From contig NZ_PSZM01000046.1 of assembly GCF_002964975.1 (NCBI RefSeq), positions 248,001-312,000 on the forward strand: a DNA stretch of 64,000 nt, written 5' to 3'. The first letter of the stretch is position 1; every line of letters begins with the position of its first letter. The notes below the pieces were generated by a model, which had not been told where the DNA came from, did no database searches, and saw only the letters and a program-made list of their open reading frames with translations. A program made the translations under genes and the position numbers. Origin of the DNA: Apibacter adventoris (GTDB lineage: Bacteria; Bacteroidota; Bacteroidia; Flavobacteriales; Weeksellaceae). Shown piece by piece: positions 9,304 to 29,223 of this stretch.

Positions 9304-9768
9304 ATGCAGAAATCATTATATTTTATTTTTCTATTATTTTTGTCTTTTTCATGTTATTCTCAGCAAAATATAGGAAAAAGTGAACAGCAGCTTGTTAAGA
9401 TTATTTATTCAAATTATGGAGGAGGTTTAGGTTGGAGTGAAACTTTAGTAATTACACAGGATTCAGTTAACTATAATTCCAATTTATTCGCAACTAATAA
9501 AAAATCTAGGTTAGATACTACTATTTCTACAGATGACTGGAATAAATTAGTTTCATTTTTTGATTTAAAAACATTTAAATCTATTCATAGCGGTCCCAGT
9601 AGATTACCTATTGATGGAACAGATACAAAATACACCGTTGTTTTAAATTCAGGGGAAAAATATTCCTTTGTTAATGGTAAAGATTTAAGTATAAATAAAA
9701 AAATAATTTCATTTTTAGAATTAATTCATTCAATAAAGAAAACAATAATTAATAAAATAAAAGAATGA
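9304..9768 (+). CDS. Secreted protein of unknown function
   Basis: The 154-residue protein has a signal peptide (MQKSLYFIFLLFLSFSCYSQ) that could be read by signal peptidase I after YSQ. A small soluble domain of strand-like character follows, with YSNYGGGLGWSETLVITQDS and DTTISTDDWNKLVSFFDL. I do not recognise a family. The stop codon overlaps the ATG of the deformylase-like gene (ATGA at 9765-9768), so the two are translationally coupled and probably act together. Confidence 0.7.
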   Translation: MQKSLYFIFLLFLSFSCYSQQNIGKSEQQLVKIIYSNYGGGLGWSETLVITQDSVNYNSNLFATNKKSRLDTTISTDDWNKLVSFFDLKTFKSIHSGPSRLPIDGTDTKYTVVLNSGEKYSFVNGKDLSINKKIISFLELIHSIKKTIINKIKE

Positions 9769-10767: not shown

Positions 10768-12138
10768 ATGTTTCAGGATACGATTTGTGCACTAGCTACA
10801 CCTCAGGGTTTAGGTGCTTTAGGCATTATACGGGTTTCGGGGAATAATTCAATAGATATAGTGAATTCGGTTTTTAAAGGGAAAGATCTTACAAAAGTAC
10901 AATCACATAGTGTACATTACGGATACATTGTAGAGGAAGAAGAAATCATTGATGAAGTAATGGTATCTGTATTTCATGCCCCTAAAACATTTACAGCAGA
11001 AAATTTGGTCGAAATTACCTGTCACGGATCTCAATATATAGAACAGCAGATAATATCATTATTGGTAAAAAAAGGATGTAGGTTGGCACTTGCCGGAGAA
11101 TTTACCCAACGGGCTTTTCTGAATGGAAGAATAGATCTGAGCCAGGCAGAAGCAGTGGCAGATTTAATAGCTGCTGAAAACAAAGCAAGTCACGATATGG
11201 CTATTTCCCAGATGCGTGGTGGTTTTTCTTCCCTTTTAAAAGAGTTGCGCATAGAACTGCTGGATTTAGCTTCTTTATTGGAATTAGAGTTAGATTTTTC
11301 CGAAGAAGATGTCGAATTTGCAGACCGTTCTCAGTTGCTCAACTTAATGGAGCGTATTCTCAATACAATACACCCTTTAATAGAATCTTTTTCTTACGGA
11401 AATGCAATAAAAAACGGAGTACCTGTAACTATTTTAGGAAAACCGAACGCAGGGAAATCTACTTTGTTAAATGCTTTATTACAGGAAGACCGAGCTATTG
11501 TGAGTGATATTGCCGGAACTACCAGAGATACGATCGAAGAATCCCTTATTATTCATGGTATTCAATTTAGGTTTATTGATACTGCCGGTCTGAGGGAGAC
11601 TCAAGATACCATAGAAGCTATTGGGGTAGCTAAAGCATTAGAAAAAGCAAAACAGGCCTCTATAATTTTATATCTGGTAGATATAGAACATTTAAATTGG
11701 ATTGAAGTTCAGGCTGATTTGAATAAATTTAGCAGAGATAATGTATATATTATAATTTGTTTGACTAAAAAAGATAAAAATATCGATTTCAAAAATTCAG
11801 ATATACCCGAAAATATAAATAAAAAATATACAATACTTACATTAGCTGTAAAAACTAATCCCGATCTTTCTATACTAAAAGAAAAAATGTTTTCATATAT
11901 AGAAAAACAAAAAACAGCTACACAGACTATAGTAAATAATGCAAGGCATTTAAACGCATTGGTTCGTGCCGAAGAATCTTTGGTATTGAGCAAAGAAGGA
12001 TTACAAAACGGATTAAGTAGTGAGCTGGTAGCTATTGACTTACGTCGGGCTTTGGAGGCGTTGGGTGAAATTGTAGGACAAGTATCAAACGATGAACTCC
12101 TCGGAAATATCTTTGGTAAATTTTGTATCGGGAAATAG
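10768..12138 (+). CDS. mnmE: tRNA modification GTPase MnmE (TrmE)
   Basis: The 456-residue protein is full length. The N-terminal tetrahydrofolate-binding domain starts MFQDTICALATPQGLGALGI. A helical domain follows, with a G domain inserted into it: GKPNAGKS (224-231), DTAG (271-274) and TKKD as the G4 motif. The C-terminus is FCIGK with the conserved Cys453. Together with MnmG it forms the 5-carboxymethylaminomethyl group on wobble U34. The accessory region and a broken recombinase gene begin just after its stop codon, so its 3' end is a candidate integration target, although I could not find a second att copy. Confidence 0.96.
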   Translation: MFQDTICALATPQGLGALGIIRVSGNNSIDIVNSVFKGKDLTKVQSHSVHYGYIVEEEEIIDEVMVSVFHAPKTFTAENLVEITCHGSQYIEQQIISLLVKKGCRLALAGEFTQRAFLNGRIDLSQAEAVADLIAAENKASHDMAISQMRGGFSSLLKELRIELLDLASLLELELDFSEEDVEFADRSQLLNLMERILNTIHPLIESFSYGNAIKNGVPVTILGKPNAGKSTLLNALLQEDRAIVSDIAGTTRDTIEESLIIHGIQFRFIDTAGLRETQDTIEAIGVAKALEKAKQASIILYLVDIEHLNWIEVQADLNKFSRDNVYIIICLTKKDKNIDFKNSDIPENINKKYTILTLAVKTNPDLSILKEKMFSYIEKQKTATQTIVNNARHLNALVRAEESLVLSKEGLQNGLSSELVAIDLRRALEALGEIVGQVSNDELLGNIFGKFCIGK

Positions 12139-12504
12139 GCTGGGGCATAAAAAAGAATCCAAGAGAAACAATCAGAAAATAAAACCCTTTCTACGTAAGG
12201 ATTACAGGAATATTTTACTTTTCGATTGTTTCCTATCCTATACTTATTCATCTAAAATTTTTATTGATTATTTATTAACTTTATATCCAAAATTCTCCAA
12301 ATCAATAAAACCTGTCAAAAAAAGGATAAAGACACTAGTCATAGAAAGAGTTTGCGACTATTATCGGATTAATAAAAATGGTGGAAATCTATTTCTTAAC
12401 CCTTTTTTCTTTCTCTTAGAGTCCTATTATATGGCTATTAATCAAAAATGATCATCCAATTAATTATAATTTTATTTTCTCAATCTAACTAAAGTTGGTG
12501 TATA
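12139..12504. other. Intergenic stretch between mnmE and the recombinase pseudogene
   Basis: 366 bases without a gene I can support. A plus-strand frame stays open from inside mnmE to 12451, but its product is a basic, low-complexity sequence with no recognisable motif. It probably holds decayed sequence from the insertion that brought the recombinase. Confidence 0.5.
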
Positions 12505-13548
12505 ATGAATATAAGATTAAGAAAACGGGAACTTAAAGAAAAAGGACGATATGCCTTATACTTGGATATTTATGCCTATCAGAAACAATGGCAGGAGAAT
12601 TTAAAATTCTATCTTGAAAGCGACAAAGGAATCCTACCCTTCGTCAGATGAATAAGCAGACTATATCTGTTGCAGAAAAAATAAAAGTAGAAAGACTATT
12701 CCAGATACAGAACGATGTTTTTGGCTTTAAACAACTCGAAAAAATTTACAGAACGTTTAATGAATTCTTCTATGAATTATGGCAGGAAAGAGAAAGGACA
12801 AAATAAACTTCGATAACTGAGATAGTGTCTCTAAACACCTTAATAACTTTAATGAAAATATTCTGTTCACATACTTAACAGAAAGATACTTGGAAGAATT
12901 CAAAGCCTATTTACTTACCAAAGTAAAAAACAATATCTCTTCCCAATATTTCAATATAATGAAGCATGCAGTACATGAAGCTTTTATAAGAAAATTATTG
13001 AGAGAAGACCTCGCCAAACGAGTAAAATCTATAAAAACAGTAGATACCAAAAGAGAATTTCTAACCAAAGGAGAAATAGAGAGCCTGATACAAACCGAAT
13101 GCTGGTACGATGTATTAAAACAAACATTTTTATTTTCGTGCTTTACAAGATCACGTTGGTCTGATGTAAATAAATTAGTCTGGGAAGAAATCCGAATCAT
13201 AAATGAAGTACATTATATCGCCTTCACCTAGAAGAAAACGAAGAACTCCGAGTTGCTCCCTATTTCTGAAATAGCAGTAAAAACTATTAGGAGAAAGAAG
13301 AGAAGATGTCACAGGACTTAGATACAGCGATTATATGAATATGGCAACTATTACAATGGTATTTGAGAGCAGGAATTACTAAACATATTACCTTTCATTG
13401 TGCCAGATATACAAACGCCATTTTGTTTTTGAATAACGGAGTAGATATATTTACCGTATCGAAGATGATAAGACATAAGGATTTAAAAACTACTTCTATT
13501 TATGCAAAAGTGATGAACGAAACCAAGATAGAAGTGGTTAAGAAATAG
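12505..13548 (+). pseudogene. Decayed Bacteroidota-type tyrosine recombinase
   Basis: The frame opens at ATG 12505 with MNIRLRKRELKEKGRYALYL (integrase N-terminal arm type) and stops at about 12650. It continues in other frames: a core-binding segment EFLTKGEIESL with CFTRSRWSDVNKLVWEE (catalytic Arg I region) at about 12890-13231, and the C-terminal piece ITFHCARYTNAI (HxxR) with MIRHKDLKTTSIYAKV (final Tyr) at 13363-13548. At least four disruptions separate the pieces. Intact relatives are about 350-410 residues, the size spanned here. It marks the left side of the accessory region next to mnmE and is presumably inactive. Confidence 0.85.
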
Positions 13549-13684
13549 CCTGAATTTGATATTTAAGTCAGTATAATTTTTTCGAATTTTTATATTGGTA
13601 TTGTATTAATAATTTCTTATTTATTATTTTGCTAAATTAGTATAATAGATGTAAATTGCAGAATATGCAAATCATTTAGTCCAA

Positions 13685-15028
13685 GTGAATAAGAAAATTA
13701 ATTATATAATTGAAGAAATAACTGACCAATATTTTATAGATGATAGTAATAGACCTTGGATAATCGGTTTTAGTGGTGGCAAGGATTCAACAGTATTGCT
13801 AACACTCACTTGGTTGGCTTTGTTGAAAATAAAGAACAAGAAGGGTAGTTCTTTTTTAACTAGGGAAGTTCATGTAGTTTGTAATGATACTTTAGTAGAA
13901 AATCCGATAATTATAAACTATGTAAATAAAGTTTTAGAGAAGATTAAAGAAGCGTCTTTAAAACACTCATTACCTGTGTTTGTTCAAAAAACAATACCAA
14001 GATTAGAAGATTCTTTTTTTGTGAATCTCATTGGTAAAGGTTATCCAGCACCAAATAATGCTTTTCGTTGGTGTACGGAAAGATTAAAAATAAAACCAAC
14101 TGCCAAATTTGTTACTGATATAGTCAAAAGCGAAAATAACGACTATCATGAAGCAATCATTCTTGTTGGAACACGAAAAAGCGAAAGTGCTACCAGAGCA
14201 AAGTCTATAAAAAAACATGAGATTAAGGGAAAACGATTAACAAAACATCCTCTGCAAAACAATGTATTTGTTTATTCTCCTATTAAAGAATTAGAATTAG
14301 AAGAAATTTGGTACATCATCAATACTTTTCAGTCACCTTGGGGTGCAAATAACAAAGAATTGTTTGATATTTATATGGATGCAAGTGCAGATGATTATGA
14401 GTGTCCTACTATGGTTTCAGACAAAGAACATAGATCTTGTGGGCAAAGCCGTTTTGGTTGTTGGACCTGTACTGTTGTAAAACAAGATAAATCTATATCA
14501 GCACAAATTGAGAAGGGACAAAAATGGTTAATACCATTACGCGATCTACGGGACTGGATTCAAGAAGAAAGAAATAAGCCAAAAAACCGTTCGCATTTAA
14601 GACGAAACGGAGTTGAAGCTTCAATTCCACATGGTGGAGTTGTTGAACTTAATCACAGAGTTGAAATTCTTGAAAAAGTATTTGAAGCACAAAAACAAAT
14701 TAATGATTTGGGTTATGAAGTTGAATTAATCAATAAACAAGAATTAATTGCAATTCAAGTGATTTGGTATCGTGATTTATTTTTTGAATACACGGTTTCG
14801 GATATCTACAATAAAGTATTTAATAAACATCTTGATATGAAACAGCACAATGAACTCGTAAAAAAAGAAGAAGAACTTTTATTGTCTGCTTGTGAAAAAG
14901 ATAAAAAACAATTCACTTTAATCCAGGACTTACTAAAATTAGAAAAGTCTAAAACAATTATGATGAAAAGAAGAGGATTAATTGAAGATATTGAAAAACG
15001 TTATAAACAGTATATTACAGCGCAATGA
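13685..15028 (+). CDS. dndC: DNA phosphorothioation sulfurtransferase DndC
   Basis: The 447-residue protein starts at GTG 13685. It has a PP-loop ATPase/PAPS-reductase-like domain with SGGKDST at residues 30-36. The DndC-type AFRWCTERLKIKP and a Cys cluster CGQSRFGCWTCTVV (iron-sulfur ligands) follow, then the basic KNRSHLRRNGVEAS stretch. DndC activates the DNA backbone and passes sulfur onto it in DNA phosphorothioation, using sulfur from a cysteine desulfurase (DndA or IscS). It is the first gene of a tight operon, and its stop overlaps the dndD start by 4 bases. No dndA or dndB is beside it, so a housekeeping IscS/SufS would have to supply sulfur. Confidence 0.93.
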   Translation: MNKKINYIIEEITDQYFIDDSNRPWIIGFSGGKDSTVLLTLTWLALLKIKNKKGSSFLTREVHVVCNDTLVENPIIINYVNKVLEKIKEASLKHSLPVFVQKTIPRLEDSFFVNLIGKGYPAPNNAFRWCTERLKIKPTAKFVTDIVKSENNDYHEAIILVGTRKSESATRAKSIKKHEIKGKRLTKHPLQNNVFVYSPIKELELEEIWYIINTFQSPWGANNKELFDIYMDASADDYECPTMVSDKEHRSCGQSRFGCWTCTVVKQDKSISAQIEKGQKWLIPLRDLRDWIQEERNKPKNRSHLRRNGVEASIPHGGVVELNHRVEILEKVFEAQKQINDLGYEVELINKQELIAIQVIWYRDLFFEYTVSDIYNKVFNKHLDMKQHNELVKKEEELLLSACEKDKKQFTLIQDLLKLEKSKTIMMKRRGLIEDIEKRYKQYITAQ

Positions 15029-17127
15029 CAATTAAAGAAATTGAACTTAATAACTTTAGAATATACAAAGGTTATAACAAAATAGACCTATCTGTTAAAA
15101 ATGATGAGATTATTGTTATTGTTAGTGGTAAAAATGGTTATGGAAAAACTACTTTTCTAATGTCACTTGTTTGGTGTATGTATGGACGACAAATGAGTGA
15201 TGTTGATGATATTTATAAAAGAGAGATTGAAAGTAACGGTAATTATAAAAAATATATCAAGAATAGCTTAAATAGACAGGCTGAATACGAGGGCAATACA
15301 ACATTTTCTGTTTCTGTAACATTTGCAAATGTTTCTACCATACCTGATATTACTTGTGATGAATTAAAAATAACACGAACTTATCATACAGAAGGCTCAA
15401 AAGAAGAAGAATTGGAAATTCTAATTGATGGAATGGAAAGCGAGTTAGCCGAAGAAGTAGGTAAGGAAATATTCATTCGTGATTTTATTATGCCAAAAGA
15501 AATTGCAAAATTCTTCTTTTTTGATGCTGAAAAAATCGTATCTCTTGCCGAAATTCATACTGCAGAACAAAGAAAAGAATTAAGTCAGGCATATATAGAA
15601 GTACTAGGGATTAAACATTATCAGGATTTAAAAGAAGATTTAGAAAGCTATTTAAACAAACTCAAGGCTGAAACAGCAAGTGCAAAAGAGAAGTCAACAT
15701 TAGAAAGTATCAAAGCGGAATCTGTAGCTAAAGAGGAGGAAAATATAGAAATACAGGATCAAATCGATAATCTAAAAGAAGATGCCTCTGCCTTAAAGTA
15801 TGACATTGATAAGTTGCAAGAAAAACTAATCAAAAACGGTAGTGTCATTACCGTTGATGAATTGAATGAACTTCGTGAAAGAAAAGAGAGTTTAGATAAA
15901 CACGTTAGTCAAATTCAAACAGAGTTAAAATCTTATTTTGAAATAATTCCATTTGCAATTACAGGAAAATTATTGACTCAAGTATTCGAACAAGTTATTG
16001 ATGAAAGAAACTTTATTAATAGAAATTTTGATAAAAATAAAGTAGATGAGATTTCAACGAAAATCATTAATGATTTAATTAATTTGCCACGCCCTAAAGA
16101 TATTCAGATTACTCATAAGGTACAAGAGTATTACATTCAAAATTTTAAAGAATTAGTGAAAAAGCATCTTGGAGAAGAAGATACACAAAATTTCGAAGAT
16201 GTTGAGATAATACACAATTATTCAGAGTCTGAAAAAGCAGAATTAGAGCAGTTTATAAATAATATTAGATTGTCGTTTAAAGAAAAATTCAGTAGAATCA
16301 ATACTGATTTCATACGTTCAAAAAATGAATTGAATGATATTAATAAGAAAATAAAACTGGCAGAAGAAAAATCGGAAGATGCTTTAGTTATTGCTGATAG
16401 AAAAAAGAAAAATGAACTAGAACAACAATATGAAAGTATCCAACAGAAAATTGGTGTTTTAGGCCAAAAAATTGAAGATAACACTAATTTAATAACACAG
16501 TATAAAAAAGAAATCAACAGAATTACAGAAAGACTTGATTTAGGTAAAGAAAATATAGAAATTGGGAAAGAAGTTGAAAATACAATCAAGACTTTAAAGC
16601 GATTTATTATAGATTTTAAGAATGAAAAATCTAAATCTCTTTCAAAAAGAATTAAAGATGGTCTAGATATATTACTTCATAAAAAATCTTTTATTAATGA
16701 TGTAAATGTTGAGATTATCGGAGAAGATATTGATATTCATTTGATTGATTCAAGGGGAAATATTATCAATAAAGATTCTCTTTCCAAAGGAGAGCAACAA
16801 ATGTACGCAACAGCTTTATTGAAAGGTTTAGTTGATGAATCAAACATCAGTTTTCCTGTATTTATTGATTCTCCAATGCAAAAATTTGATGTAGACCACT
16901 CCAACAGTATTGTAAAATATTTCTATCCAAAGGTTTCAGACCAAGTGATCATTTTCCCATTACTTAAAAAAGAAATGAATGAAGAAGAATTTAACATTTT
17001 GCTACCGAATGTCAGCAAAACATATTTAATTAAGAATGTTGATAATGAACAATCTTCATTTGAGGAAGTAGAAAATAAAGAAGATTTGTTTAGAATATTT
17101 GAAAAAGACTATCAAGATGCAGTTTAA
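15025..17127 (+). CDS. dndD: DNA phosphorothioation ATPase DndD
   Basis: The 700-residue SMC/Rad50-like ATPase starts MTIKEIELNNFRIYKGYNKI, with Walker A GKNGYGKTTF at about 35-44. Long coiled coils (about 210-285 and 395-530) flank a central hinge-like region, and the end carries the signature LSKGEQQMYATALLKGL and Walker B FPVFIDSPM. Length and layout match DndD, which works with DndC and DndE and is thought to supply ATP hydrolysis and DNA-structure changes needed for sulfur insertion. It overlaps dndC by 4 bases (ATGA) and dndE by 11-29 bases depending on the dndE start. Confidence 0.93.
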   Translation: MTIKEIELNNFRIYKGYNKIDLSVKNDEIIVIVSGKNGYGKTTFLMSLVWCMYGRQMSDVDDIYKREIESNGNYKKYIKNSLNRQAEYEGNTTFSVSVTFANVSTIPDITCDELKITRTYHTEGSKEEELEILIDGMESELAEEVGKEIFIRDFIMPKEIAKFFFFDAEKIVSLAEIHTAEQRKELSQAYIEVLGIKHYQDLKEDLESYLNKLKAETASAKEKSTLESIKAESVAKEEENIEIQDQIDNLKEDASALKYDIDKLQEKLIKNGSVITVDELNELRERKESLDKHVSQIQTELKSYFEIIPFAITGKLLTQVFEQVIDERNFINRNFDKNKVDEISTKIINDLINLPRPKDIQITHKVQEYYIQNFKELVKKHLGEEDTQNFEDVEIIHNYSESEKAELEQFINNIRLSFKEKFSRINTDFIRSKNELNDINKKIKLAEEKSEDALVIADRKKKNELEQQYESIQQKIGVLGQKIEDNTNLITQYKKEINRITERLDLGKENIEIGKEVENTIKTLKRFIIDFKNEKSKSLSKRIKDGLDILLHKKSFINDVNVEIIGEDIDIHLIDSRGNIINKDSLSKGEQQMYATALLKGLVDESNISFPVFIDSPMQKFDVDHSNSIVKYFYPKVSDQVIIFPLLKKEMNEEEFNILLPNVSKTYLIKNVDNEQSSFEEVENKEDLFRIFEKDYQDAV

Positions 17128-18661
17128 TATAAAAACATCATCAGAGCTTGTAAAAAAGCTGACCAACAAAATGGGACTGGGTGAAGAAAACCATATTGCT
17201 CGAATTTCAATAGCTTATTCTTTGGCTAAAGGCGCTACATATAACTCTGAAAAGCTTTATAATTCAACTGATAAACAAAAGGAATATAAAGACAATACTT
17301 TATTTGGAAGTTACAAAGATTATTACGTTTCATTAATTTGTCAAAAGTACCAAATTCATAAAGACGATGCTGATGTGAGAATATATCTAAAATGGCATAT
17401 TGATAAAGGTTTGGAAATGATAAACTTGTATTTTAATGAAAATAAGAATGTTTCAGGGATTGAATTTTTGCTAGACCATATTGAGTTAGGAATTGATGCA
17501 ATAAATGAAAATGAGACAAGTTTTGATTTTGTCAAGAACAAGAATAATTTCTTAAAAGAAAAAGAAAGCTATTTAGCACCTATTAAAATTTTAATCGGCG
17601 AGTATCATGGGAAAGATATTTATTTCACACCTAATAACACTTCTATTTATGGGAATTGCCATGTTGCTATCGCAGGGCAATCAGGAACAGGAAAATCATA
17701 TTTTGCAAGAAAGTTTTTGGAAAGAATTATAGCCGAATCAAAAGGGCAAGTCAACTTCCTTTATTTAGACTTTAAAGGAATGACCGAAAGCGACAAGACT
17801 AACAAAGATTATAAAGATTTTTTTTCATCAACTAATGCAAAACTAATCGATACACCAAAAGACTCATTCCCTGTTAATCCGTTATCTTTTATCAATAATG
17901 TAAATGAAAAGGATAAAATTGTTGGAATTGGTCGTTTCGTTGATATTATAGTTAAATATGCTAATTTGGGGAATGTTCAGAAACAACATTTAAAAGATGC
18001 TACAAGAAAAGCTTTTGAAGATAAGAAAGACGGTTCTTATCCAACATTATCAGAGATTTTAGAAAATGTTTATGAGATTGCTGGAGATAAGCCTACATCA
18101 CTAACACAAATATTGATTGGCCTAACTGAAATTGATTTGTTTGATAATAATAAACTTGGAGATTTTATTAATGAAAATTATTATCTAAGTCTTTCAGGTG
18201 ATTTAAGTAAAGAAGTACGTTTTACTGCAACTTTTTTAGTGATTTATTATCTATATAATATATTCATGAATATGGATAAAGTATCTATTGATGATAATTA
18301 TAGTGGACTTAGGTATGTGTTATTGATTGATGAAGCTCATAACGTATTCAAAGAAAAGAAATCACAAGAAATATTAGAAAAATTATTGCGTGAGGTTCGT
18401 TCACAGGGAGTAGCTGTAATGCTTGTTTCGCAAGGTGTTGAAGAATTTAATCAACCAACATTTGATTTCTCTGAAATGTGTCAATCAGCATTTTTAATGC
18501 AAATAAAAGATGGAAATAACTGGAAATCTACAAGTAAATTTTTAGGGGCTGGAGAAAAGCAGAGAAATAAAATAAACCGCTCAATGGAAGCAATTAATCC
18601 AAGACAAGCAATTTCGAATATTAAAGAATTTGAGTTTGGAGAGATTTTTAATATAAAGTAG
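17099..18661 (+). CDS. dndE: DndE fused to a HerA/FtsK-like ATPase
   Basis: The 520-residue product joins two parts. Residues 7 to about 130 match DndE: MQFNIKTSSELVKKL, then ARISIAYSLAKGA, LFGSYKDYYVSLICQKYQI and VRIYLKWHIDKGLEMI. DndE alone is only about 110-130 residues. The rest (about 160-520) is a P-loop ATPase with Walker A GQSGTGKS (193-200), YLDFKG, Walker B YVLLIDEAHN (406-415) and VMLVSQGVEEF, like HerA/FtsK/DptH-type DNA pumps. An alternative start at 17117 (MQFNIK) fits DndE better and shortens the overlap with dndD to 11 bases. The fusion places a putative DNA translocase in the modification complex. A weak hairpin with a T run lies at about 18721-18746. Confidence 0.88.
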   Translation: MKKTIKMQFNIKTSSELVKKLTNKMGLGEENHIARISIAYSLAKGATYNSEKLYNSTDKQKEYKDNTLFGSYKDYYVSLICQKYQIHKDDADVRIYLKWHIDKGLEMINLYFNENKNVSGIEFLLDHIELGIDAINENETSFDFVKNKNNFLKEKESYLAPIKILIGEYHGKDIYFTPNNTSIYGNCHVAIAGQSGTGKSYFARKFLERIIAESKGQVNFLYLDFKGMTESDKTNKDYKDFFSSTNAKLIDTPKDSFPVNPLSFINNVNEKDKIVGIGRFVDIIVKYANLGNVQKQHLKDATRKAFEDKKDGSYPTLSEILENVYEIAGDKPTSLTQILIGLTEIDLFDNNKLGDFINENYYLSLSGDLSKEVRFTATFLVIYYLYNIFMNMDKVSIDDNYSGLRYVLLIDEAHNVFKEKKSQEILEKLLREVRSQGVAVMLVSQGVEEFNQPTFDFSEMCQSAFLMQIKDGNNWKSTSKFLGAGEKQRNKINRSMEAINPRQAISNIKEFEFGEIFNIK

Positions 18662-19131
18662 TCTTTCATATTAAGAATGTTTTAATAGATGTAGTAAATA
18701 TCATATTTCTATTATAAGAAAAGAAGATTAAAAAATCTCCTTTTTTATAAAAATAATTTTCTAATTTAGAAAACTTCTCTACATTTTTAATGTATTCAAT
18801 TGAATATTACGCGTAATACAACAAAATAAATTTAGGTTAATCAATTAAAAACCTTGGTCTTGTCCAGAAAATTGACCTCTTTGGAAAAGAATCCAGAAAT
18901 CAACACAATTTTTACTTTAGATATGAATAATTAATTTGATGCCTAGAACAAATTAGGTTATTCAATTAACCTTTTAGTCTCGTCTAAATAATGCCCCCCT
19001 TTGGAAGGTATTTAAGCAATAAAAATTATAATAAGAAGGTTTTAGTTGACCTAAAGACTTGCCTAAATATAATACCTTATTGGGTAGGATAAATCAAACC
19101 ATAAAATACTAATTTAAAAAAAGAAGTTATT
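18662..19131. repeat. Three degenerate direct repeats and two palindromes upstream of the HTH gene
   Basis: 470 bases without a gene. Two adjacent perfect palindromes lie at 18794-18805 (ATTCAATTGAAT) and 18805-18818 (TATTACGCGTAATA). Three diverged copies of a unit follow, with the shared core GGTTA.TCAATTAA..CCTT..GTCT.GTC and then TTTGGAA: about 18832-18890, 18952-19012 and, more weakly, 19037-19090. The position just before a small excisionase-type HTH gene suggests protein-binding sites (operator, or excision/transfer control). That reading is inference. Confidence 0.6.
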
Positions 19132-19422
19132 ATGAAGAATAACGACATTATACTAATTATTGAGCAAATTCTCAATAATAAGACAAAAATTTTTGAAAAA
19201 GTTTTTTTGGATACTATAGATACTTGTCTGTTTTTAGGTGTATCAAAATCAACGCTTTATAAGAAATACTATAATAAGGAAATTCCTTATTTTAAGCCAG
19301 ATGATAGTAAAAAAATTACTATCATAGAGATGCTCTTATTGAATACACTACCCAAAACAAAATGCTCTCAAAGCAGGAGCTTGAAGAAAAAGCCAAAAAT
19401 TTTTTTAAAACCTAAGAAATGA
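19132..19422 (+). pseudogene. Excisionase-type helix-turn-helix protein, frameshifted at an A7 run
   Basis: The continuous frame gives 96 residues. Residues 20-63 (DTIDTCLFLGVSKSTLYKKY, then KEIPYFKPDDSK) are a MerR/excisionase-like HTH of the kind found in Bacteroidota mobile elements. After the run of seven A at about 19309-19315, this frame becomes unlike the family. The other frame reads NYYHRDALIEY and then LSKQELEEKAKNFFKT, with a stop at 19413-19415, and looks like the genuine family C-terminus. So either one base has been lost or gained, or slippage at A7 restores the frame. It follows the repeat cluster, which may be its binding region. Confidence 0.7.
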
Positions 19423-19534
19423 ATGTGTTAATAACCTGTGGTTGTTAGATTGTGCTTGTAATTATACTATTCTCATTCTTACTATTCGGATTGTTATTTA
19501 TAGGCTTTCTTACAAGCAACTAAAAATATAGGAT

Positions 19535-19710
19535 ATGTATAAAATTAGAGAGTAATTGAAAGATACATTTAAAAAAGGAAAATATACATTTACTTATGTA
19601 TCTAAAGATATAATGAGAGATAATGGAAAAAATATTGATCTATTAAAAAACAACCTAAAAAAGGTTCTAGTATGTTAGGTGGAATAATAGGAGCATTTAT
19701 TAAAAATTAA
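19535..19710 (+). pseudogene. Remnant of a small gene of unknown function
   Basis: A frame from ATG 19535 is broken by one early stop and by a shift near 19660. The readable pieces are LKDTFKKGKYTFTYVSKDIM, MRDNGKNIDLLKNNLKK and, in another frame, SSMLGGIIGAFIKN ending at 19710. The codon-like composition suggests a former small protein. No family is recognised. The rest of 19423-19774 shows no gene I can support. Confidence 0.35.
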
Positions 19711-19774
19711 GAAAAATAAAATTCAAATAAAATAAAATAAAAATTATCTTAAATTAGCTTTGTTATTTAAAATT

Positions 19775-20848
19775 ATGGAATACAAAATACATACTGTGAA
19801 TGGGGAGGAAAAACTATCATCCATTGCAGAAAAATATAATACAACCTCAGAAGCTATAAAAGCCTTGAATCCTAATATGAGAATTGTGGGAAGTTTTCTT
19901 ATAGGAGGAACTTTTATAGCACATGGGCAACAGATTAAAATTCCAATTCGAATTCTTGAACAAGTAAAAGTAGAGCGAAAACAAGGAGACACTATTCCTG
20001 AAGGGGAATTTATCAAACAAGTTCGTTACCGATGCAATCAAGATAATTTGATAATTATAGACGGAACTCCTAATTTTTCTTGTGAACTTAAAACACAGTA
20101 TTTACTTTCTACTTTAAATAACGAAGAACAAAAATACTTAAATGTTAAATTAGAAGATTATATTACTTCTATTCAACCTCAGGGAATGCAAGAAGCCTTT
20201 GAGTTGATTAAGCAAATAGAGTTAATTAGGAATCAGATTATTTTTACACAAGATAATTTAGGTAAAATATCTAAAATTCATAATTTAGGAACACTTGAGA
20301 ATAATTGGAAAAGGTTTCTGAATAAAGAAGTTAAAAATATTCCGTTCTTTCAAGAACTGGAAAAAAGAAGTCCTGATACCATTCAGGATTTTATCAAAAA
20401 TGGGAATAAAGAATTTTCTAGTAATGGAGAATTAGCAGAAGTATTAGATAAAAATTTATTTTATCATATTCTACTTAAAGCAAATTTACAAGATAACTTA
20501 AAAGAATACATCTTAAATCAGCAATCACAAATATTCCCTAATATAAAATTGCAAATAAAGGTAGTTAAAAGTATTGCCTCAGAAGATGATTTATCTACAA
20601 CTTATAGGTTGGTAGGAACTCTAAATAAAGAGAAATTAAATGAAAAGGAGTTGCAGAAATTGTACATAGAAATGTATCAGCCTCTTATCAAATTCTCTTA
20701 TACAGAATTTGATTATATCTACCGAATTACTTATGTAATAGAAAACAAAACGGGGTTATTAATTAATGCTAGTGCTTCTTTGAGCGAGCAAGTCAAAAAT
20801 AATTACGAAACTATTACTAAATTTGAGCTAAAAAAGATAGAGTTGTAA
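19775..20848 (+). CDS. LysM-domain protein, possible contractile-system component or effector
   Basis: From ATG 19775 the protein is 357 residues; an upstream in-frame start at 19760 would only add MLFKI. Residues 1-55 form a LysM domain (YKIHTVNGEEKLSSIAEKY, EAIKALNP, GQQIKIPI). The remaining 300 residues are mostly helical and polar, with no motif I recognise and no signal peptide. LysM proteins without signal peptides occur as tail or baseplate parts of contractile injection systems and as adaptors for PAAR-like effectors. The PAAR-like gene 1 kb downstream supports such a link, but the role is inference. Confidence 0.65.
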   Translation: MEYKIHTVNGEEKLSSIAEKYNTTSEAIKALNPNMRIVGSFLIGGTFIAHGQQIKIPIRILEQVKVERKQGDTIPEGEFIKQVRYRCNQDNLIIIDGTPNFSCELKTQYLLSTLNNEEQKYLNVKLEDYITSIQPQGMQEAFELIKQIELIRNQIIFTQDNLGKISKIHNLGTLENNWKRFLNKEVKNIPFFQELEKRSPDTIQDFIKNGNKEFSSNGELAEVLDKNLFYHILLKANLQDNLKEYILNQQSQIFPNIKLQIKVVKSIASEDDLSTTYRLVGTLNKEKLNEKELQKLYIEMYQPLIKFSYTEFDYIYRITYVIENKTGLLINASASLSEQVKNNYETITKFELKKIEL

Positions 20849-20908
20849 TATTAATATGAAAGATGCTAAACCCCTCCTCTCATAGTCTTTATTATATTTT
20901 TGGTAATA

Positions 20909-21283
20909 ATGATAATTATCGAAGTTCTTAGTAATATAGAATCTCCATGCGAAGAAAAGCCTTGTTTTAGATATGCTAAATTAGGTATGAGTGAAAAAGA
21001 GGTTATTAAAGAGTTTGGCTATCCAGAATTAATAACTTATAATAAAGAAGAAATAGTAGAAGACCTTAAAGATTTGAAAAACACATATAATAAATTCATA
21101 CAAGAGTATAAAAAAAGCGAGAAAAAATTTGTAGAAGATAGATTAGATAATATAAATAAAATTCTAAATAATATAAATAATTCTAATTTGAAAAAATGCA
21201 GGTATATCATAAAAGTTCCAAAAGAAAATTATGAATATTATAAAACTATTTATTACTTAAACAGTGAACTTATTGTTTTTTAA
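20909..21283 (+). CDS. Small hypothetical protein with an SmpA/BamE-like motif
   Basis: The preferred start is ATG 20909, giving 124 residues; a TTG at 20900 is also in frame. A TATTTTTG -7 element at 20895-20902 leaves almost no leader. The N-terminal third contains LGMSEKEVIKEFGYPE, which resembles the Gly-x-Ser-x-x-x-Val ... Gly-x-Pro motif of SmpA/OmlA (BamE)-type domains. The middle is a charged coiled coil. No clear signal peptide is present. It lies between the LysM gene and a two-helix-pair membrane protein, perhaps as part of an effector/immunity group. Confidence 0.55.
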   Translation: MIIIEVLSNIESPCEEKPCFRYAKLGMSEKEVIKEFGYPELITYNKEEIVEDLKDLKNTYNKFIQEYKKSEKKFVEDRLDNINKILNNINNSNLKKCRYIIKVPKENYEYYKTIYYLNSELIVF

Positions 21284-21301
21284 TCTTTAAATTATTTGAA
21301 A

Positions 21302-21808
21302 ATGACTGAGATAAAAGCTAAAGCATATTACTATTCTACCATGATGAAAACAGCCTATTTATGGTTACCTGTTTTTACCGTAGTATTATTTATATGTTCT
21401 TATTTTGAAAAACTACGTTTTTTTTTGTTTCTGACAGTAGGAGCTGCAACATATGGATTAATTTTAAATCAGATGAAGAAAAAATCTATTCAGATTATTT
21501 TTTCAGAAAATAGTATAACTATTGATAAAGATACAATTCTATTGTCAGATATTGTAAACTATCACATCTGTTTGCCTCTAAATGAGTTATTCATGTTAAG
21601 GGTGAAAACAAAGAATAAAAATCTAATAACCTATATTGGAAAAGAATTTAAAGAAGAAGTTGAAATATTTTTAAAGAATAGTTCAATTTCAGAAAATAAA
21701 ACTGTTTATGATATCTCTCTAAAATATAGTCATTTAATACTCCCTTTTATTGGATTATTAATATGTGGAATTATTATTAAAATACAATATATAATTAAAT
21801 ACAACTAA
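21302..21808 (+). CDS. Hypothetical membrane protein
   Basis: The preferred start is ATG 21302 (168 residues); the TTG at 21296 is less likely. Two N-terminal membrane helices (about 17-55, WLPVFTVVLFICSYF and FFLFLTVGAATYGLIL) are followed by a soluble part of about 90 residues and one helix near the C-terminus (ILPFIGLLICGIIIKI). The layout is like small PH-domain-type membrane proteins of Bacteroidota, though I cannot assign a family. Its stop codon ends one base before the ATG of the PAAR-like gene, implying translational coupling and possibly an immunity or accessory role. Confidence 0.6.
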   Translation: MTEIKAKAYYYSTMMKTAYLWLPVFTVVLFICSYFEKLRFFLFLTVGAATYGLILNQMKKKSIQIIFSENSITIDKDTILLSDIVNYHICLPLNELFMLRVKTKNKNLITYIGKEFKEEVEIFLKNSSISENKTVYDISLKYSHLILPFIGLLICGIIIKIQYIIKYN

Positions 21809-21809
21809 A

Positions 21810-23066
21810 ATGAGTAAAGCCTATATACCTAAAGATACTTGAGTGGTTTGTACTTATCAGCAAAATACCGACCCTAAAAAATTAGATGTAACTAGAGCCA
21901 AAGTTTCTGTGTTTTATAAGAAAGATAAGGCTCTTTTAACTGTAGAAGATAGGAATACAGATGAAAAATTTATTTGTAAAAGCCCTATGAATCTACTAAT
22001 GGGATTAGCAGGGCTTGCTGTAGGTTTAATATTAGCCTCAAACCCTATTGGATGGGTTGTAGCCGGTATTTGTGTGGGAATTCTTGTTGCTGCTGCAACT
22101 ATAGCAATAGTTACTCATAAATGTACAGGTCCTTTACAAAAAGGGAAATGGATAAATTTTAAAAAAACGGTTTATTTTAATGGGCATAGAGCAATTACCC
22201 AATTATCAATGCTTATGTGTGATAGTGGAGGAATGCTACAGCCTATTATTAGTTATGATGTAGCTTGTAAAGCTGCTAAAGCAATTGCCTGGGAGAATAT
22301 TAAGGAAACAACAGTAGTAACTGTAGGAGCTATTGCATCAGGTTTTCTAATGGGTAAAGGAGGTGGATTTTTGAATGCAATGAAAGGTATATTTACTAAA
22401 TCAGGAGCTTTGTTTACTCTTGGAGGTATCGGAACAACTTATGCTATGACTTCTTATCAACAACATGTAATGAGAGGTAATGAAGCTTATGCAGATAATG
22501 AGGTTTATCAAAGAATGAATGAGGCGGATAAGAAAGATTATGGTGATATTAAGACTATAGGAGAAGAATTTGGGAATTCTATAAAAGATGCTGCTTTATC
22601 AGGGGCACCGCCAAATATTAGTGATTTAGCAGGAGTAGTACAATTATATAGAACAGGACAATTAATTATACAAGATGCAACTTTACGGGCTCAATTTGAG
22701 AAATTAGCTACTATGAATAGGCAGCAATTAAATTCAAGTCAATTAGCTCAAAATATATGGAGAGAGGTACAAACTAACCCTAAGTATGAAAGTGTTTATA
22801 ATGCGGTCAAAAGAAATAGTAATTATAATCAAAATAGGGTTACCCCTACAATGAGAAATAATGCTATATCTCATTTGGATGACAGTATCAATAATAATAA
22901 ATGGTCGTTGAATAACCCTAATTCTTTACTATCAAAAGGAGCTTCTATTGCTCTTTTCTTTGTTCCATTGGTAAGTGGATATTTTTCTGAAAATGCAAGA
23001 AGGAAATTAGCAGATATAGCTGTGCAGGATGCAACAGACAGTATAAGTGTAAGAACAAGTAAATAA
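21810..23066 (+). pseudogene. PAAR-like (DUF4280-type) protein with a Trp-to-stop change at codon 11
   Basis: The natural start is ATG 21810, one base after the preceding stop. It reads MSKAYIPKDT and then meets TGA at 21840-21842, after which the same frame continues VVCTYQQNTDPKKL to 23066. TGA in place of TGG (Trp) is the simplest explanation. A GTG immediately after the stop (21843) could restart translation and give 407 residues. Features are hydrophobic glycine-rich helices (about 45-85), HKCTGPLQKGKW followed by AITQLSMLMCDSGGMLQPII (the PAAR-like part), a second hydrophobic stretch (about 160-190) and a polar C-terminal region. Relatives cap contractile-system spikes and carry toxins. 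Loss of the first 10 residues may inactivate it. Confidence 0.65.
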
Positions 23067-23432
23067 TTTATTCAAGTTTTATTTTAAATTTTTATTAGTA
23101 ATAGAGTTAATCAAAGAAGTAATCATTGATTGGGATAAGATATCTAAAAAAGTTAAATTTTCTAAACACTATAATTTCGGCTAGTTAGTTCACTTTATTT
23201 TTAGATATTAAAATCTTTTGGGGATTTTAAAGAAAAAATTTACTTTCTGCATTGAATAGTAACCAATTAAAATAAAGACAAATAAAAAATGAATTAAATA
23301 TGTTTATATCAAACAATTACATGCATTAATTTAGATTTTTCTAAAACTTTATTTTTTAATTTACTTTAAATATTTACCGTGTGTGTAAAAGAAAATATAA
23401 TTTTGCTTCATTAATTCAACTGAAAAATTGAT
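23067..23432. other. Gene-free stretch with a likely promoter
   Basis: 366 AT-rich bases. A short frame piece (IKEVIIDWDKISKKVKFSKH, about 23110-23180) looks like a gene remnant but is too short to assign. A TAATTTTG -7 element at 23398-23405 is placed to drive the membrane-protein gene at 23433. Confidence 0.45.
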
Positions 23433-23750
23433 ATGAATACTCTTTTATTATCCATAATCATAGGCTTAATCATAGGCTCTATTGATATAGTGCCAATGAT
23501 TAAACAAAAGCTTCCTCAGTATTCGATTGTTGCTTCATTTTTGTTTTTCTTATTCATTTCTATAATTATATTTCACTCAAATATTCCTTATCTTGTGTGG
23601 TGGTTGCAAGGTGCAATAATTTCAATCGCAATGATGTCGCCCGTATTAATTCATGTAGGAGCTACAGATAGAAAGCCGATTCTTATTATTGCTCTTAATA
23701 CAATAATTCTGGGTACATTGATTAGTATTGCCAAATATTTTTTATTATAA
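23433..23750 (+). CDS. Small integral membrane protein
   Basis: The 105-residue protein is almost entirely hydrophobic and has four predicted helices (about 3-20, 30-48, 52-72 and 82-104). A short polar connection with GATDRKPILI lies before the last helix. The Pro/Asp in GSIDIVPMIKQKLPQ and the general layout resemble a family of small membrane proteins of Bacteroidota without known function. It stands alone, with its own -7 element 28 bases upstream. Confidence 0.65.
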   Translation: MNTLLLSIIIGLIIGSIDIVPMIKQKLPQYSIVASFLFFLFISIIIFHSNIPYLVWWLQGAIISIAMMSPVLIHVGATDRKPILIIALNTIILGTLISIAKYFLL

Positions 23751-24132
23751 TAATATTAAAATGATTTTTCTAATTCAATCTTAAATATTGTCTATGTATT
23801 TTTACTAAAAAAATGGCTCATAAAAGTGTTTTTTTGGATATTCTTTTCGAATGCCACTCAATAAAGCCAAATTCCTTTATAATAAATCTTTCTTTTATAA
23901 AAATCTGTTAGCATATGATGAAAGAAAAAATTTATTACATAAAAAAACTGTTTATTATTGTGCATTTCATAATATTCAAGAGTCTAAAATGTTATAAGTA
24001 TTATATAAAACTTATTGAAAATTATTTAAATTGTTTTTTTTTTTAAAGATTTGGAAGTAGACTTGAGCAGAGGACGCTAAGAGCAGGGCTAAAAAAACCG
24101 ATATACATAGTAAAAAGTGTAATATACAGACA
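23751..24132. other. Gene-poor stretch with degraded sequence
   Basis: 382 bases. A 48-codon ORF at 23851-23997 (starting MPLNKAKFLYNKSFF) has no independent support. The patch at about 24050-24100 is visibly less AT-rich than its surroundings. I see no RNA gene or repeat here. Confidence 0.4.
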
Positions 24133-24749
24133 ATGAAAAAATAGCATTATTTTTTAAGATATTATTAATTACTCAGGGTTTTGGTCAAAATCAGTATGAA
24201 GAATTATCAGGAAATTATCTGTCAAATAGTAAAACGTGTAAGGCAAATTTATTTATAGAAAAAAAGCACCTATCAATTAAATATAAATGATAAATACAAA
24301 GATTCTGGACTAGTGCATATTTCCAAAAAAGAAAAAAATTATACATAAATTTTGGAGATATAAGTTCCTTATATACAAAAGATACAATTATTCTTTAGAA
24401 TTCAGGGAATTCAATGAGTCCTTATATTCGTTTTGATAATTGTGATGAAAAATTTATTCAACTTATAAAAGTTAAAAATAAAAAAAGTAAATATTCAGAA
24501 CTTATAAAAGATATAGATAACGATAAAATTAAAGATACTATTTTTATAAGTGAAGAAGAAACAAGAATAATATGTAAACTTTCTTCTTGCAACTTTAAAG
24601 AGATTAAAAGTAAGAAACTTGACTTCTTAAATGAAAATTCTGGAATAATTGATACAAAAAATGGATTTGAATTTTATAATAATTGGATGAGAGCAGGTTA
24701 TAAAAACCAATTTAGATATAATCCTAAATTAAAAAAATACAACTTATAG
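24133..24749 (+). pseudogene. Frameshifted gene for a secreted protein of unknown function
   Basis: The reading starts at ATG 24133 but needs one extra A in the A-run to give MKKIALFFKILLITQGFGQ, a signal peptide. It then reads NQYEELSGNYLSNSKTCKAN, shifts in the A-rich stretch near 24260-24270, continues INDKYKDSGLVHISKKEKN, shifts again near 24345, and meets a TAG at about 24396 before NSGNSMSPYIRFDNC. The last 111 codons (from 24414) remain open. The pieces line up as one protein of about 200 residues. No family is recognised. Several single-base changes in homopolymer runs show the gene is dead. Confidence 0.6.
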
Positions 24750-24751
24750 GA

Positions 24752-25018
24752 ATGAGTAGGTTTGAATTTGGTCCGGCTAATAATGATGGGAGCGGAGAAT
24801 CAAGTGTAAATCTGTTAACGAATCAGTATATAGGAAAATGGAGTTATTATGATGTAAATAAAGATTACTTAGTAAAGATGCCGGAAATCAGGGCAAAGAT
24901 GATTTTCCCTAAAATATATTTAGAAAACTTTAGTAGTGACATATATTTTGATTATTCTGAAAAATGTTCAGAATTATACTATAAAAAGAAGCAGGATTTA
25001 TTAAATAAAAAAGAGTAA
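24752..25018 (+). CDS. Small hypothetical protein
   Basis: The 88-residue product starts 2 bases after the upstream pseudogene and has the sequence features FEFGPANNDGSGESSVNLL and YIGKWSYYDVNKDYLVKMPE. It may be complete or may be the end of a larger protein, because the N-terminus lacks a signal and begins abruptly with a Gly/Asn-rich stretch. No family is recognised. Its neighbours are decayed, so it too may be a remnant. Confidence 0.4.
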   Translation: MSRFEFGPANNDGSGESSVNLLTNQYIGKWSYYDVNKDYLVKMPEIRAKMIFPKIYLENFSSDIYFDYSEKCSELYYKKKQDLLNKKE

Positions 25019-25512
25019 GAAAGAATTAGAATTATAAAATTAATTTTTAAATAACAAAAACCCTAATAGTTGGTCCACTTTAACTTTAAAGAGTAAAATC
25101 ATATAGGCAGATTTTAATGAAATGTTTGGTTTTAATAGAAAATATAATGTATATAGATCAAATAATAATTGATATTACTTGCTTAATTTTTTAATATTAC
25201 AAATAAATTGAAGATAAACAAATTTTAATTTATAATATTTACCCTCTCATATTTGTTTACAAATATAAAAAGTTATAAAAAAAGTAAGCTAGATAATAAT
25301 CCCCCTTGGTTTAAGTATATGAAAATTAGGGGATATCTTTCTTTTATAACTTATAATAAGTGTATTGTTGGTAATAAAAAAAATAAAAAAAATAAAAAAA
25401 TGGATTTTGACATTACCTTTAAATTATAAAATATAAGGTTGATAACAGGTTATTTATACAGCTAAGGAATCATATGGAAATTTATAAATAATGAGTGAAA
25501 AAAAAGTTGATT
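25019..25512. other. AT-rich gene-free stretch
   Basis: About 490 bases. I see no gene, RNA or clear repeat, only poly-A/T tracts (for example three successive AAATAAAAAA-like units at about 25375-25400). It probably contains the promoter of the HEAT-like gene, but no convincing TAnnTTTG element with the right spacing stands out. Confidence 0.4.
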
Positions 25513-26046
25513 ATGGACATCAAAAAAAAACTATCTGAACGAATAAAAATGGAAGATATCGATGGAATACTTGAGATAACTCATACTAGTGATAGTAAAA
25601 AGCAGGAGCTGTATAATATACTCATAGGCAAAGATGAAAAAATGGGTTGTCAAGCAGCGTGGATATTTACTCATTTTTCAGCACAAGATAATAAATGGCT
25701 ATATAAAAAACAAAATGAGTTGATTGATACACTTTTGAATTGCAAACACGGAGGAAAACGAAGACTTATTCTTAGTTTACTCTATAAACAACCCTTTATG
25801 GAACCAATAAGAGTCGATTTTCTTGATTTTTGTTTAGAACGAATAATTACAGTAAAAGAATTAGCCGGAGTACAATCTCTTTGTATAAAAATTGCTTATG
25901 AATTATGTCGTCCTTTTCCAGAACTGATACAAGAACTTAAATCAATACTAGAAATGATGGAAGGAGACTTATCTCCGGCAATTCTGAATGTTCGAAAAAG
26001 CATACTGAAAGCTATTCAAAATGGAAAAAGCTTGCAAAAAATTTAA
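25513..26046 (+). CDS. HEAT-repeat-like helical protein of unknown function
   Basis: The preferred ATG is 25513 (MDIKKKLSERIKMEDIDGIL), giving 177 residues; a GTG at 25495 would add six. It is an all-helical protein of about four paired helices with the character of HEAT/adaptin repeats: GCQAAWIFTHFSAQDNKWLY, GGKRRLILSLLYKQPFMEP and ELAGVQSLCIKIAYELCRPF. Similar proteins occur in many Bacteroidota genomes as single genes without assigned function. No signal peptide is present. It is the last clear gene of the accessory region before the core resumes. Confidence 0.7.
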   Translation: MDIKKKLSERIKMEDIDGILEITHTSDSKKQELYNILIGKDEKMGCQAAWIFTHFSAQDNKWLYKKQNELIDTLLNCKHGGKRRLILSLLYKQPFMEPIRVDFLDFCLERIITVKELAGVQSLCIKIAYELCRPFPELIQELKSILEMMEGDLSPAILNVRKSILKAIQNGKSLQKI

Positions 26047-27643: not shown

Positions 27644-27799
27644 TCGATTTATAAGGTTAAGAAAAATGCGATTATTTCCATAATAATAAACTACAGTATA
27701 AGAGGGAAAACTAATTAGTAATTAAATTATCAATAGTTTATCTTTAATTAAGAAAAACGAGAGATAGGCAACTATACTATAATAGTGTACCTTTGCTAT

Positions 27800-29140: not shown

Positions 29141-29190
29141 AATATATAATTATTTTTTTTAATTATTATTTAATATAAATTTTCAATAAA

Positions 29191-29220
29191 AAAAAGCATC
29201 TATTATTAGATGCTTTTTTA
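29191..29220. terminator. Bidirectional terminator between dbpA-like gene and tRNA-Gly
   Basis: GCATCTA (29196-29202), a TTAT loop and TAGATGC (29207-29213), flanked by A5 on the left and T6 on the right. It therefore works for both converging transcripts. Confidence 0.85.
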
Positions 29221-29223
29221 TTG

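What the first reader, a model, noticed from the sequence alone, without database searches (positions are those of the whole stretch)
13685..18661. Compact dndCDE operon with DndE fused to a HerA/FtsK-like ATPase and no dndB or restriction genes
dndC, dndD and a dndE-ATPase fusion overlap head to tail. Canonical DndE is only about 110-130 residues. The extra 360 residues have Walker A GQSGTGKS and Walker B LLIDEAHN, resembling DNA-pumping ATPases such as DptH of the restriction part of Dnd systems. Neither dndFGH-type genes nor pbeABCD are adjacent. The fusion might supply the defence function within the modification complex, or translocate DNA during modification.
Basis: partly seen in the sequence, partly recalled or inferred. 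Interest (0 to 1): 0.62.

Follow-up and report, generated by a model that had tools for sequence, protein, structure and literature searches.

The report
DndEi-type DNA sulfur-marking operon
This is a three-gene operon that should put sulfur into the bacterial DNA backbone, with a DNA motor joined to one of its proteins; that joined protein has been described before and is common in this group of bacteria, but relatives show an unexpected socket right behind it where different defence-like gene sets are swapped in, and in this genome the socket is empty.

Summary
In detail: dndC (13685-15028), dndD (15025-17127) and a DndE-HerA fusion (likely ATG 17117, stop 18661) overlap. Family searches of the whole genome find no DndB and no DndF. 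The fused motor is specifically of the DndH/DptH kind (best structural match 7es4, Z 37.4). The fusion is not new. It matches DndEi in architecture (Zheng et al., J Biol Chem 2016; I saw the title and citing text only), whose helicase activity the title calls essential for phosphorothioation; Rakesh et al. (2024) also describe DndE-HerA/FtsK fusions. It is ordinary here: 10 of 17 DndE-bearing genomes in the class sample carry it. The most likely role is a DNA motor inside the modification complex, not a restriction enzyme. What I did not find described is an exchange point at the fusion's stop codon. Of 50 related core pairs with different downstream content, 47 lose DNA similarity within -9 to +33 nt of that stop; there GIY-YIG-like + DndB-like, membrane protein + DndB-like, ParB-like + unknown, and GHKL + methyltransferase-like + Mrr sets alternate. 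DndF co-occurs with 2 of 62 fused against 7 of 19 unfused DndE genomes. In the window the slot is empty, without detected remnants, although the core is under purifying selection.

The parts
13685..15028 (+). dndC: PP-loop sulfurtransferase; specificity loop GYPAPNNAFRW
   Evidence: loop
15025..17127 (+). dndD: SMC/Rad50-like ABC ATPase; only two cysteines and no CxC motif
   Evidence: PADLOC best model is labelled PbeC
17117..18661 (+). dndEi: DndE fused to a HerA/DptH-type motor, 514 aa (alternative TTG start 17099)
17132..17437 (+). DndE domain (PF08870)
17576..18658 (+). HerA/FtsK motor domain matching DndH C-domain 7es4 (model residues 154-514)
17675..17698 (+). Walker A GQSGTGKS
18320..18340 (+). 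Walker B LLIDEAH
13683..18661 (+). portable core: DNA shared with Chryseobacterium loci L015 and L017 starts 2 nt before the dndC start codon and ends at the dndEi stop codon
18662..19131 (.). empty accessory slot; relatives carry exchangeable gene sets here; no tblastn trace of 145 slot proteins in 18662-20900
12890..13231 (+). tyrosine integrase fragment (Phage_int_SAM_5, 21.5 bits, just under the cut-off of 22.3)
19132..19422 (+). 96-aa HTH_17-like protein (21.5 bits, under the cut-off of 27), possible excisionase remnant

Best explanation
The locus is a DndEi-type DNA phosphorothioation operon. DndC (fed by a housekeeping cysteine desulfurase) activates sulfur, DndD is the Rad50-like clamp that holds DndC and DndE, and DndEi brings its DndE domain plus a DptH-type HerA motor to the DNA. 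The motor uses ATP to move or open DNA at the target site so that sulfur can be inserted; it is a part of the modification machine. Shown here: anatomy, motor type, purifying selection on both halves, no DndB or DndF found in the genome, and an exchangeable downstream slot that is empty in the window. Inferred: PT is made, the motor serves modification, and in this genome the operon marks DNA without a linked restriction or effector module. In relatives, alternative modules plugged in behind dndEi would supply regulation and attack.
For: DndC and DndD pass curated cut-offs. DndE domain over the Pfam cut-off. Motor domain matches DndH C-domain 7es4 at Z 37.4, rmsd 2.5, 343 residues, well above VirB4 at 27.1 and HerA-type chains at 22.6; by sequence 1.1e-31 with a profile of 5 fusions. 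DndC cluster members lie in 74 of 81 loci and DndD in 79 of 81 (some contigs are cut). NG86 dN/dS against Chryseobacterium L015 and L017: dndC 0.034 and 0.035, dndD 0.055 and 0.052, DndE part 0.047 and 0.043, motor part 0.043 and 0.040. Literature: title of Zheng et al. 2016 in a reference list; PMC7464106 section 3.3 reports 'dndEi' with an additional helicase domain in Prevotella and Bacteroides; PMC10853773 passage on HerA/FtsK domains fused to DndE; DndD holding DndC and DndE in E. coli B7A (PMC12193691, passages).
Against: No PT measurement. The JBC paper could not be read, and its protein sequence was not compared with this one. The canonical DndE equivalog model is not reached. The DndC loop reads N-N-A, none of the three patterns tied to known motifs in PMC12193691. 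The near-exclusion of DndF can also be read as the fused motor replacing a restriction function. In L057 the fusion persists as an open frame with no dndD match in its 21.5-kb locus, which a motor serving only DndCDE modification would not predict.
Confidence: 0.72

Rival explanations
1. The fused motor is a restriction unit: DndEi recognises target or unmodified sites, and the DptH-like motor drives attack on invading DNA, replacing DndFGH.
For: Motor is of the DndH C-domain kind. DndF found in 2 of 62 fused (one of the two with an internal stop) against 7 of 19 unfused DndE genomes, Fisher p = 4e-4, relatedness not controlled (counts). Genomes drawn by the genome search only: 0 of 15 against 7 of 19, p = 0.011.
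Against: No nuclease domain found in the fusion; no gene at all in the window's slot. Published title says helicase activity is essential for modification. The two groups of genomes differ in lineage and in how they were drawn.
Confidence: 0.17
2. The window copy is a decaying remnant of an island, with its accessory module and mobility genes lost, and no longer functions.
For: Integrase fragment upstream and short HTH protein downstream, both weak Pfam matches; empty slot.
Against: All three genes are open; dN/dS 0.03-0.06 on every part. 13 of the 84 loci with a readable slot are empty by the same rule, among them the complete C. indologenes AA5 chromosome, L017.
Confidence: 0.08
3. The swapping at the dndEi stop codon is a by-product: noncoding DNA simply diverges faster than coding DNA, or draft assemblies are joined wrongly.
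For: 10 of 20 pairs with the same module type also end at -7 to 0, so part of the pattern is plain divergence or relatedness of modules only at family level. L079 and L092 are bins labelled with other phyla, so some contigs are probably misbinned.
Against: Cores 99.3-99.6% identical (L079 with L080, L081, L083) end at -1 to +23 when modules differ, while L080, L081 and L083 with the same module stay similar for another 3.6 kb. L025/L026 and L033/L034 regain similarity beyond different modules (93.5% over 3.1 kb; 80.8% over 1.2 kb).
Confidence: 0.1

Closest known systems
DndEi (Zheng et al. 2016, J Biol Chem 291:1492; title seen only; source organism Riemerella anatipestifer is recalled, not read)
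   Same: DndE with an additional helicase/ATPase domain, described in a PT modification setting; reported in Prevotella and Bacteroides (PMC7464106), genera that are also among my fused loci
   Different: Its sequence was not compared here (paper not held). I found no slot analysis in the texts searched.
Clade-3 HerA/FtsK domains fused to DndE (Rakesh, Aravind, Krishnan 2024, PMC10853773; abstract, passages and sections 12, 14, 16, 17, 22 read)
   Same: The same architecture: HerA/FtsK fused to DndE, next to a DndD-related ABC ATPase, related to DndH motors
   Different: The sections read do not describe exchange at the fusion's stop codon or the membrane protein + DndB-like pair; figures and supplements were not readable here
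DndFGH / DptFGH restriction system
   Same: The motor domain is of the DndH C-domain kind (7es4; PADLOC DndH positions 1314-1670 of 1715)
   Different: No DndF match in the genome; the fusion is 514-520 aa and lacks the N-terminal part of DndH
PbeABCD (CxC-type ABC ATPase system)
   Same: PADLOC's best model for the DndD is labelled PbeC (596 bits against 308 for DndD)
   Different: No CxC motif in the protein; dndC present; no PbeA-like match among the neighbours scanned

Membership tests
Dnd phosphorothioation system, DndEi subtype | DndC sulfurtransferase over curated cut-off | tested here: met
   TIGR03183 397.1 bits, cut-off 290.4
Dnd phosphorothioation system, DndEi subtype | DndD ABC ATPase over curated cut-off | tested here: met
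   TIGR03185 266.5 bits, cut-off 245.85
Dnd phosphorothioation system, DndEi subtype | DndE domain | tested here: met
   PF08870 67.9 bits, cut-off 25; the canonical equivalog TIGR03184 is below its cut-off, 42.2 of 71.85
Dnd phosphorothioation system, DndEi subtype | C-terminal helicase/ATPase domain on DndE with intact Walker motifs | tested here: met
Dnd phosphorothioation system, DndEi subtype | a cysteine desulfurase to supply sulfur | tested here: inconclusive
   9 Aminotran_5 matches over the cut-off in the genome (10 in all), best 503 bits; the family is wider than cysteine desulfurases, and which one serves, if any, is unknown
Dnd phosphorothioation system, DndEi subtype | phosphorothioate in genomic DNA | not testable with these tools
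   needs LC-MS/MS or iodine cleavage
Dnd phosphorothioation system, DndEi subtype | sequence homology to the published DndEi itself | not tested
   paper not held; equated by architecture and by genera named in PMC7464106
DndFGH restriction system | DndF present in the genome | tested here: not met
   TIGR03238: 0 matches in G000
DndFGH restriction system | DndH with N-terminal nuclease and DNA-recognition domains | tested here: not met
   fusion is 520 aa at most; PADLOC DndH is matched only at positions 1314-1670 of 1715
PbeABCD / CxC system | CxC zinc-hook motif in the ABC ATPase coiled coil | tested here: not met
   DndD has cysteines only at 51 and 111, no CxC
PbeABCD / CxC system | PbeA (HKD nuclease + SF2 helicase) linked | tested here: inconclusive
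   five neighbouring proteins scanned without such a match; not every neighbour and not the whole genome was searched

The most novel reading that the evidence does not exclude
DndC-DndD-DndEi is a portable core with a socket at the dndEi stop codon. With its DptH-type motor already built into the modification complex, it mostly does without DndFGH and instead accepts interchangeable attack modules (GIY-YIG-like + DndB-like, multi-pass membrane protein + DndB-like, ParB-like + putative nuclease, GHKL + methyltransferase-like + HARE-Mrr nuclease), which are swapped between nearly identical cores across genera. DndB-like proteins would then be adaptors that couple PT status to different effectors, not only transcriptional regulators, and cores with an empty socket, as here, would be pure markers waiting for a module.
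Probability: 0.4. Interest if true: 0.66.

Novelty: new member of a known kind. Interest (0 to 1): 0.4.

Why it matters
The fusion itself is settled ground, but the comparison turns it into a testable system. Near-identical cores carry different downstream modules (99.6% core identity, L079 and L080), so the contribution of each module to phage defence could be compared on a constant PT background. It could also show how fused-type systems manage with DndF so rarely present, and what the DndB-like proteins do.

Tried and rejected
Island ends: direct repeats in 11800-30000 gave no convincing attachment-site pair (20 of 28 families shown, mostly AT-rich imperfect pairs). Tandem repeats in 18600-19800: six short rows. 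Selection on the fusion after dndD loss (L016, L019): not informative, because the inserted HNH gene is young (dS 0.13) while the cores differ by dS about 0.7-1.3. DndE tree: 123 columns, 40 of 100 inner branches open; 3 label changes between fused and unfused, 2 forced by well-supported branches, so no firm claim on a single origin; one short-frame DndE (L140) sits among fused ones. Model of the unknown 328-aa slot protein (pLDDT 72): Foldseek's top rows are restriction endonucleases EcoT38I and MspJI, but E 0.035 or worse with low TM-scores, so 'nuclease' stays a guess. A CxC/Pbe assignment from PADLOC labels was rejected for lack of CxC. The fold search of the fusion barely tested the DndE half (note); that half has a sequence match to 7x4e DndE at 2.4e-9.

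G445 (314-aa frame) and G606 (below the DndE cut-off) are kept among the 19 unfused; dropping them gives p = 2e-4 with the uncorrected 64. L056 was not held and not searched. Only 50 of the 80 named loci were offered. The third match (G744) is below the cut-off and not counted; one of the two counted (L094's genome) has an internal stop.

Slot counts: dropped before the census were L035 (fusion broken into two frames), L125 (no fusion found), and L117 and L119 (same contigs as L052 and L042). 'Empty' means no same-strand gene within 200 nt; L028 and L076 have such a gene slightly further off, L087 has a second module just beyond that limit, and L122, L123 and L126 belong to a distant branch without dndC. 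In the pair count, lumped 3 pairs with both slots empty into its 53 'different' pairs; one search separates them (50 different, 3 both empty, ends at -1, 12, 13). L089 and L092 are 99.99% identical; without L092 the different-named-module pairs fall from 35 to 28.

Full report
1. What is there. The three genes lie as described. DndC and DndD pass their curated models. The third protein, probably starting at ATG 17117, joins a DndE domain (PF08870) to a P-loop motor. An AlphaFold2 model (46 sequences, mean pLDDT 86.3, pTM 0.71) places residues 154-514 on the crystal structure of the DndH C-domain (7es4) with Z 37.4 and rmsd 2.5 over 343 residues; VirB4 (27.1) and HerA-type chains (22.6 and less) follow at a distance (Foldseek's top 1000 chains only). 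Sequence profiles agree: DndH C-domain 1.1e-31, DndE 7x4e 2.4e-9.

2. The genome. The window lies in a 2.75-Mb genome in 47 contigs. The same-family genome G871 is 100% identical over its 3.3-kb locus to the Chryseobacterium candidae locus L016, so the family is probably Weeksellaceae (inference). One DndE, no DndF match, no DndB match, and nine Aminotran_5 matches over the cut-off, the family that holds cysteine desulfurases.

3. It is known and common. The closest published thing is DndEi, whose paper title states that its helicase activity is essential for PT modification and that its ATPase is stimulated by GAAC/GTTC DNA (title read in the reference list of PMC7464106; paper itself not held). 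PMC7464106 reports dndEi in Prevotella and Bacteroides (section 3.3). Rakesh et al. 2024 (PMC10853773; passages, sections) report HerA/FtsK domains fused to DndE beside a DndD-related ATPase, related to motors of some DndH proteins. In my survey 10 of the 17 class genomes over the DndE cut-off (of 395 searched) and 5 of 16 in the order (of 395) carry the long form, judged by open frame length. A scan of genome contigs found 264 relatives, of which the best 80 were kept.

4. A portable core. In blastn at E 1e-5, the whole window against the Chryseobacterium loci L015 and L017 gives one stretch each, from 13683 to 18661 and 18660, that is from 2 nt before the dndC start codon to the fusion's stop codon, at 86% identity; nothing else in those loci matches. 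Synonymous change is large (dS about 0.85-1.24) while dN/dS is 0.03-0.06 in all parts, DndE half and motor half alike.

5. A swappable slot. Gene clustering and a census of 88 loci show what follows the fusion: membrane protein + DndB-like 25, GIY-YIG-like + DndB-like 15, both 1, ParB-like + 328-aa protein 10, ParB-like alone 1, GHKL + Methyltransf_35 with HARE-Mrr 5 and without 1, AlbA_2 2, HARE-Mrr 1, DndB-like alone 1, other 9, contig end 4, empty 13 (window included). Names rest on representatives: DndB PF14072 over the cut-off, Mrr_cat, HATPase_c_3, Methyltransf_35; GIY-YIG only weakly (0.0011 and 0.0093, both under the cut-off; two further representatives without a hit). The membrane proteins have 2-5 hydrophobic segments (27 of 27), against none in 18 of 19 GIY-YIG-like proteins. 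The ParB-like gene resembles PADLOC PD-Lambda-5_A (2.6e-27); its partner has no family.

6. The exchange point. Among core pairs with at least 80% DNA identity and readable slots: 35 pairs have different named modules, 13 have one empty slot, 2 have one unnamed content; of these 50, 47 end between -9 and +33 nt of the stop codon, and the 3 exceptions share their first slot gene. Three both-empty pairs end at -1, 12 and 13. Of 20 pairs with the same module type, 10 continue 1.7-10 kb beyond and 10 end at -7 to 0. The clearest case is L079 against L080: 99.6% identity over 5.8 kb ending at -1, GHKL/Mrr against membrane + DndB-like. L025/L026 and L033/L034 become similar again beyond their different modules. 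Many pairs share loci (33 loci in the set), so they are not independent events.

7. Relation to DndFGH. DndF over the cut-off: 2 of 62 fused against 7 of 19 unfused genomes (duplicates removed; p = 4e-4, relatedness not controlled). This fits a system that does not need DndFGH, but does not show that the fusion restricts DNA.

8. The window's own state. Its slot holds no gene of 80 aa or more for 470 nt, and no tblastn trace of 145 slot proteins in 18662-20900. With an integrase fragment upstream and a small HTH protein downstream, it looks like a core that arrived or survived alone. I read it as a PT-marking unit without a linked effector.

9. Verdict. Observation confirmed; the fusion is a known form (DndEi) and ordinary in the class; the modification role is preferred over the defence role. 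The slot is the part I did not find in print. Paper searches made: 'DndE phosphorothioate ATPase fusion', 'DndE HerA', 'dndCDE phosphorothioat', 'DptH translocase phosphorothioat', 'DGQHR phosphorothioat', 'phosphorothioat Bacteroidetes dndE fused', 'DndEi', 'Riemerella phosphorothioat', 'phosphorothioat GIY-YIG DndB'. Only open-licence PMC papers are held. Rakesh et al. do note URI (GIY-YIG-like) and REase genes linked to Dnd loci. Their figures and supplements were not readable here, so prior notice of the slot cannot be excluded.

Noticed in passing
L016:8443-9405, L019:8443-9405, L069:7965-8927, L057:8997-9962, L020:4076-5047: A sulfur-binding-domain HNH nuclease (tested on the L069 protein: PDB 8h0l_A SBD 3.4e-7; NCBIfam PT-DNA_restrict, below its cut-off; the others are 58-75% identical to it) sits right behind dndC in L016, L019, L069 and L057 and takes the place of the N-terminal part of dndD: about aa 1-534 gone in L016 and L019, about 1-374 in L069, no dndD match in the L057 locus. 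A PT-dependent nuclease that removes the PT-making ATPase would be a neat conflict. L020 has two further genes between dndC and the HNH gene.
   Followed up: partly
L016 and L019 around 9406-9508, L069 after 8927: A conserved stretch of about 90 bp follows the HNH gene in these three loci (read by eye in the output), as if the HNH gene and this sequence move as a unit.
   Followed up: no
window dndC, loop GYPAPNNAFRW; same loop in relatives: In 78 fused-type loci whose DndC fits the searched pattern, the three specificity-loop residues are mostly N-x-x (NNA 29, NKF 12, NTA 11, NNS 9), none equal to the TRS, TQN/NQT or R-x-K/R patterns linked to known PT motifs in PMC12193691 (a few loci are duplicates). 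The target motifs may differ or the rule may not extend.
   Followed up: partly
L122:2484-4700, L123:2450-4654, L126:2688-4688: A distant branch has DndD-like + DndE-HerA with no dndC beside it; instead a 666-738-aa protein with sigma region 4-like and, in two of three, RNA polymerase alpha-CTD-like stretches lies upstream.
   Followed up: no
L127 (fusion on - strand): The GIY-YIG-like + DndB-like pair lies between dndD and the fusion instead of behind it.
   Followed up: no
L067:11731-12729: The core is followed by a gene of glycosyl transferase family 3 (anthranilate phosphoribosyltransferase type by recall; Pfam), so it may sit inside a trp operon.
   Followed up: no
window 10768-13231: The end of a gene that looks like mnmE (by sequence, from memory) is followed by an integrase fragment; the mnmE 3' end is a known island site elsewhere (recalled), but no convincing flanking repeat was found.
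   Followed up: partly
window 19760-23066: LysM and DUF4280 genes follow the operon; from memory such genes often belong to contractile-injection or secretion clusters.
   Followed up: no
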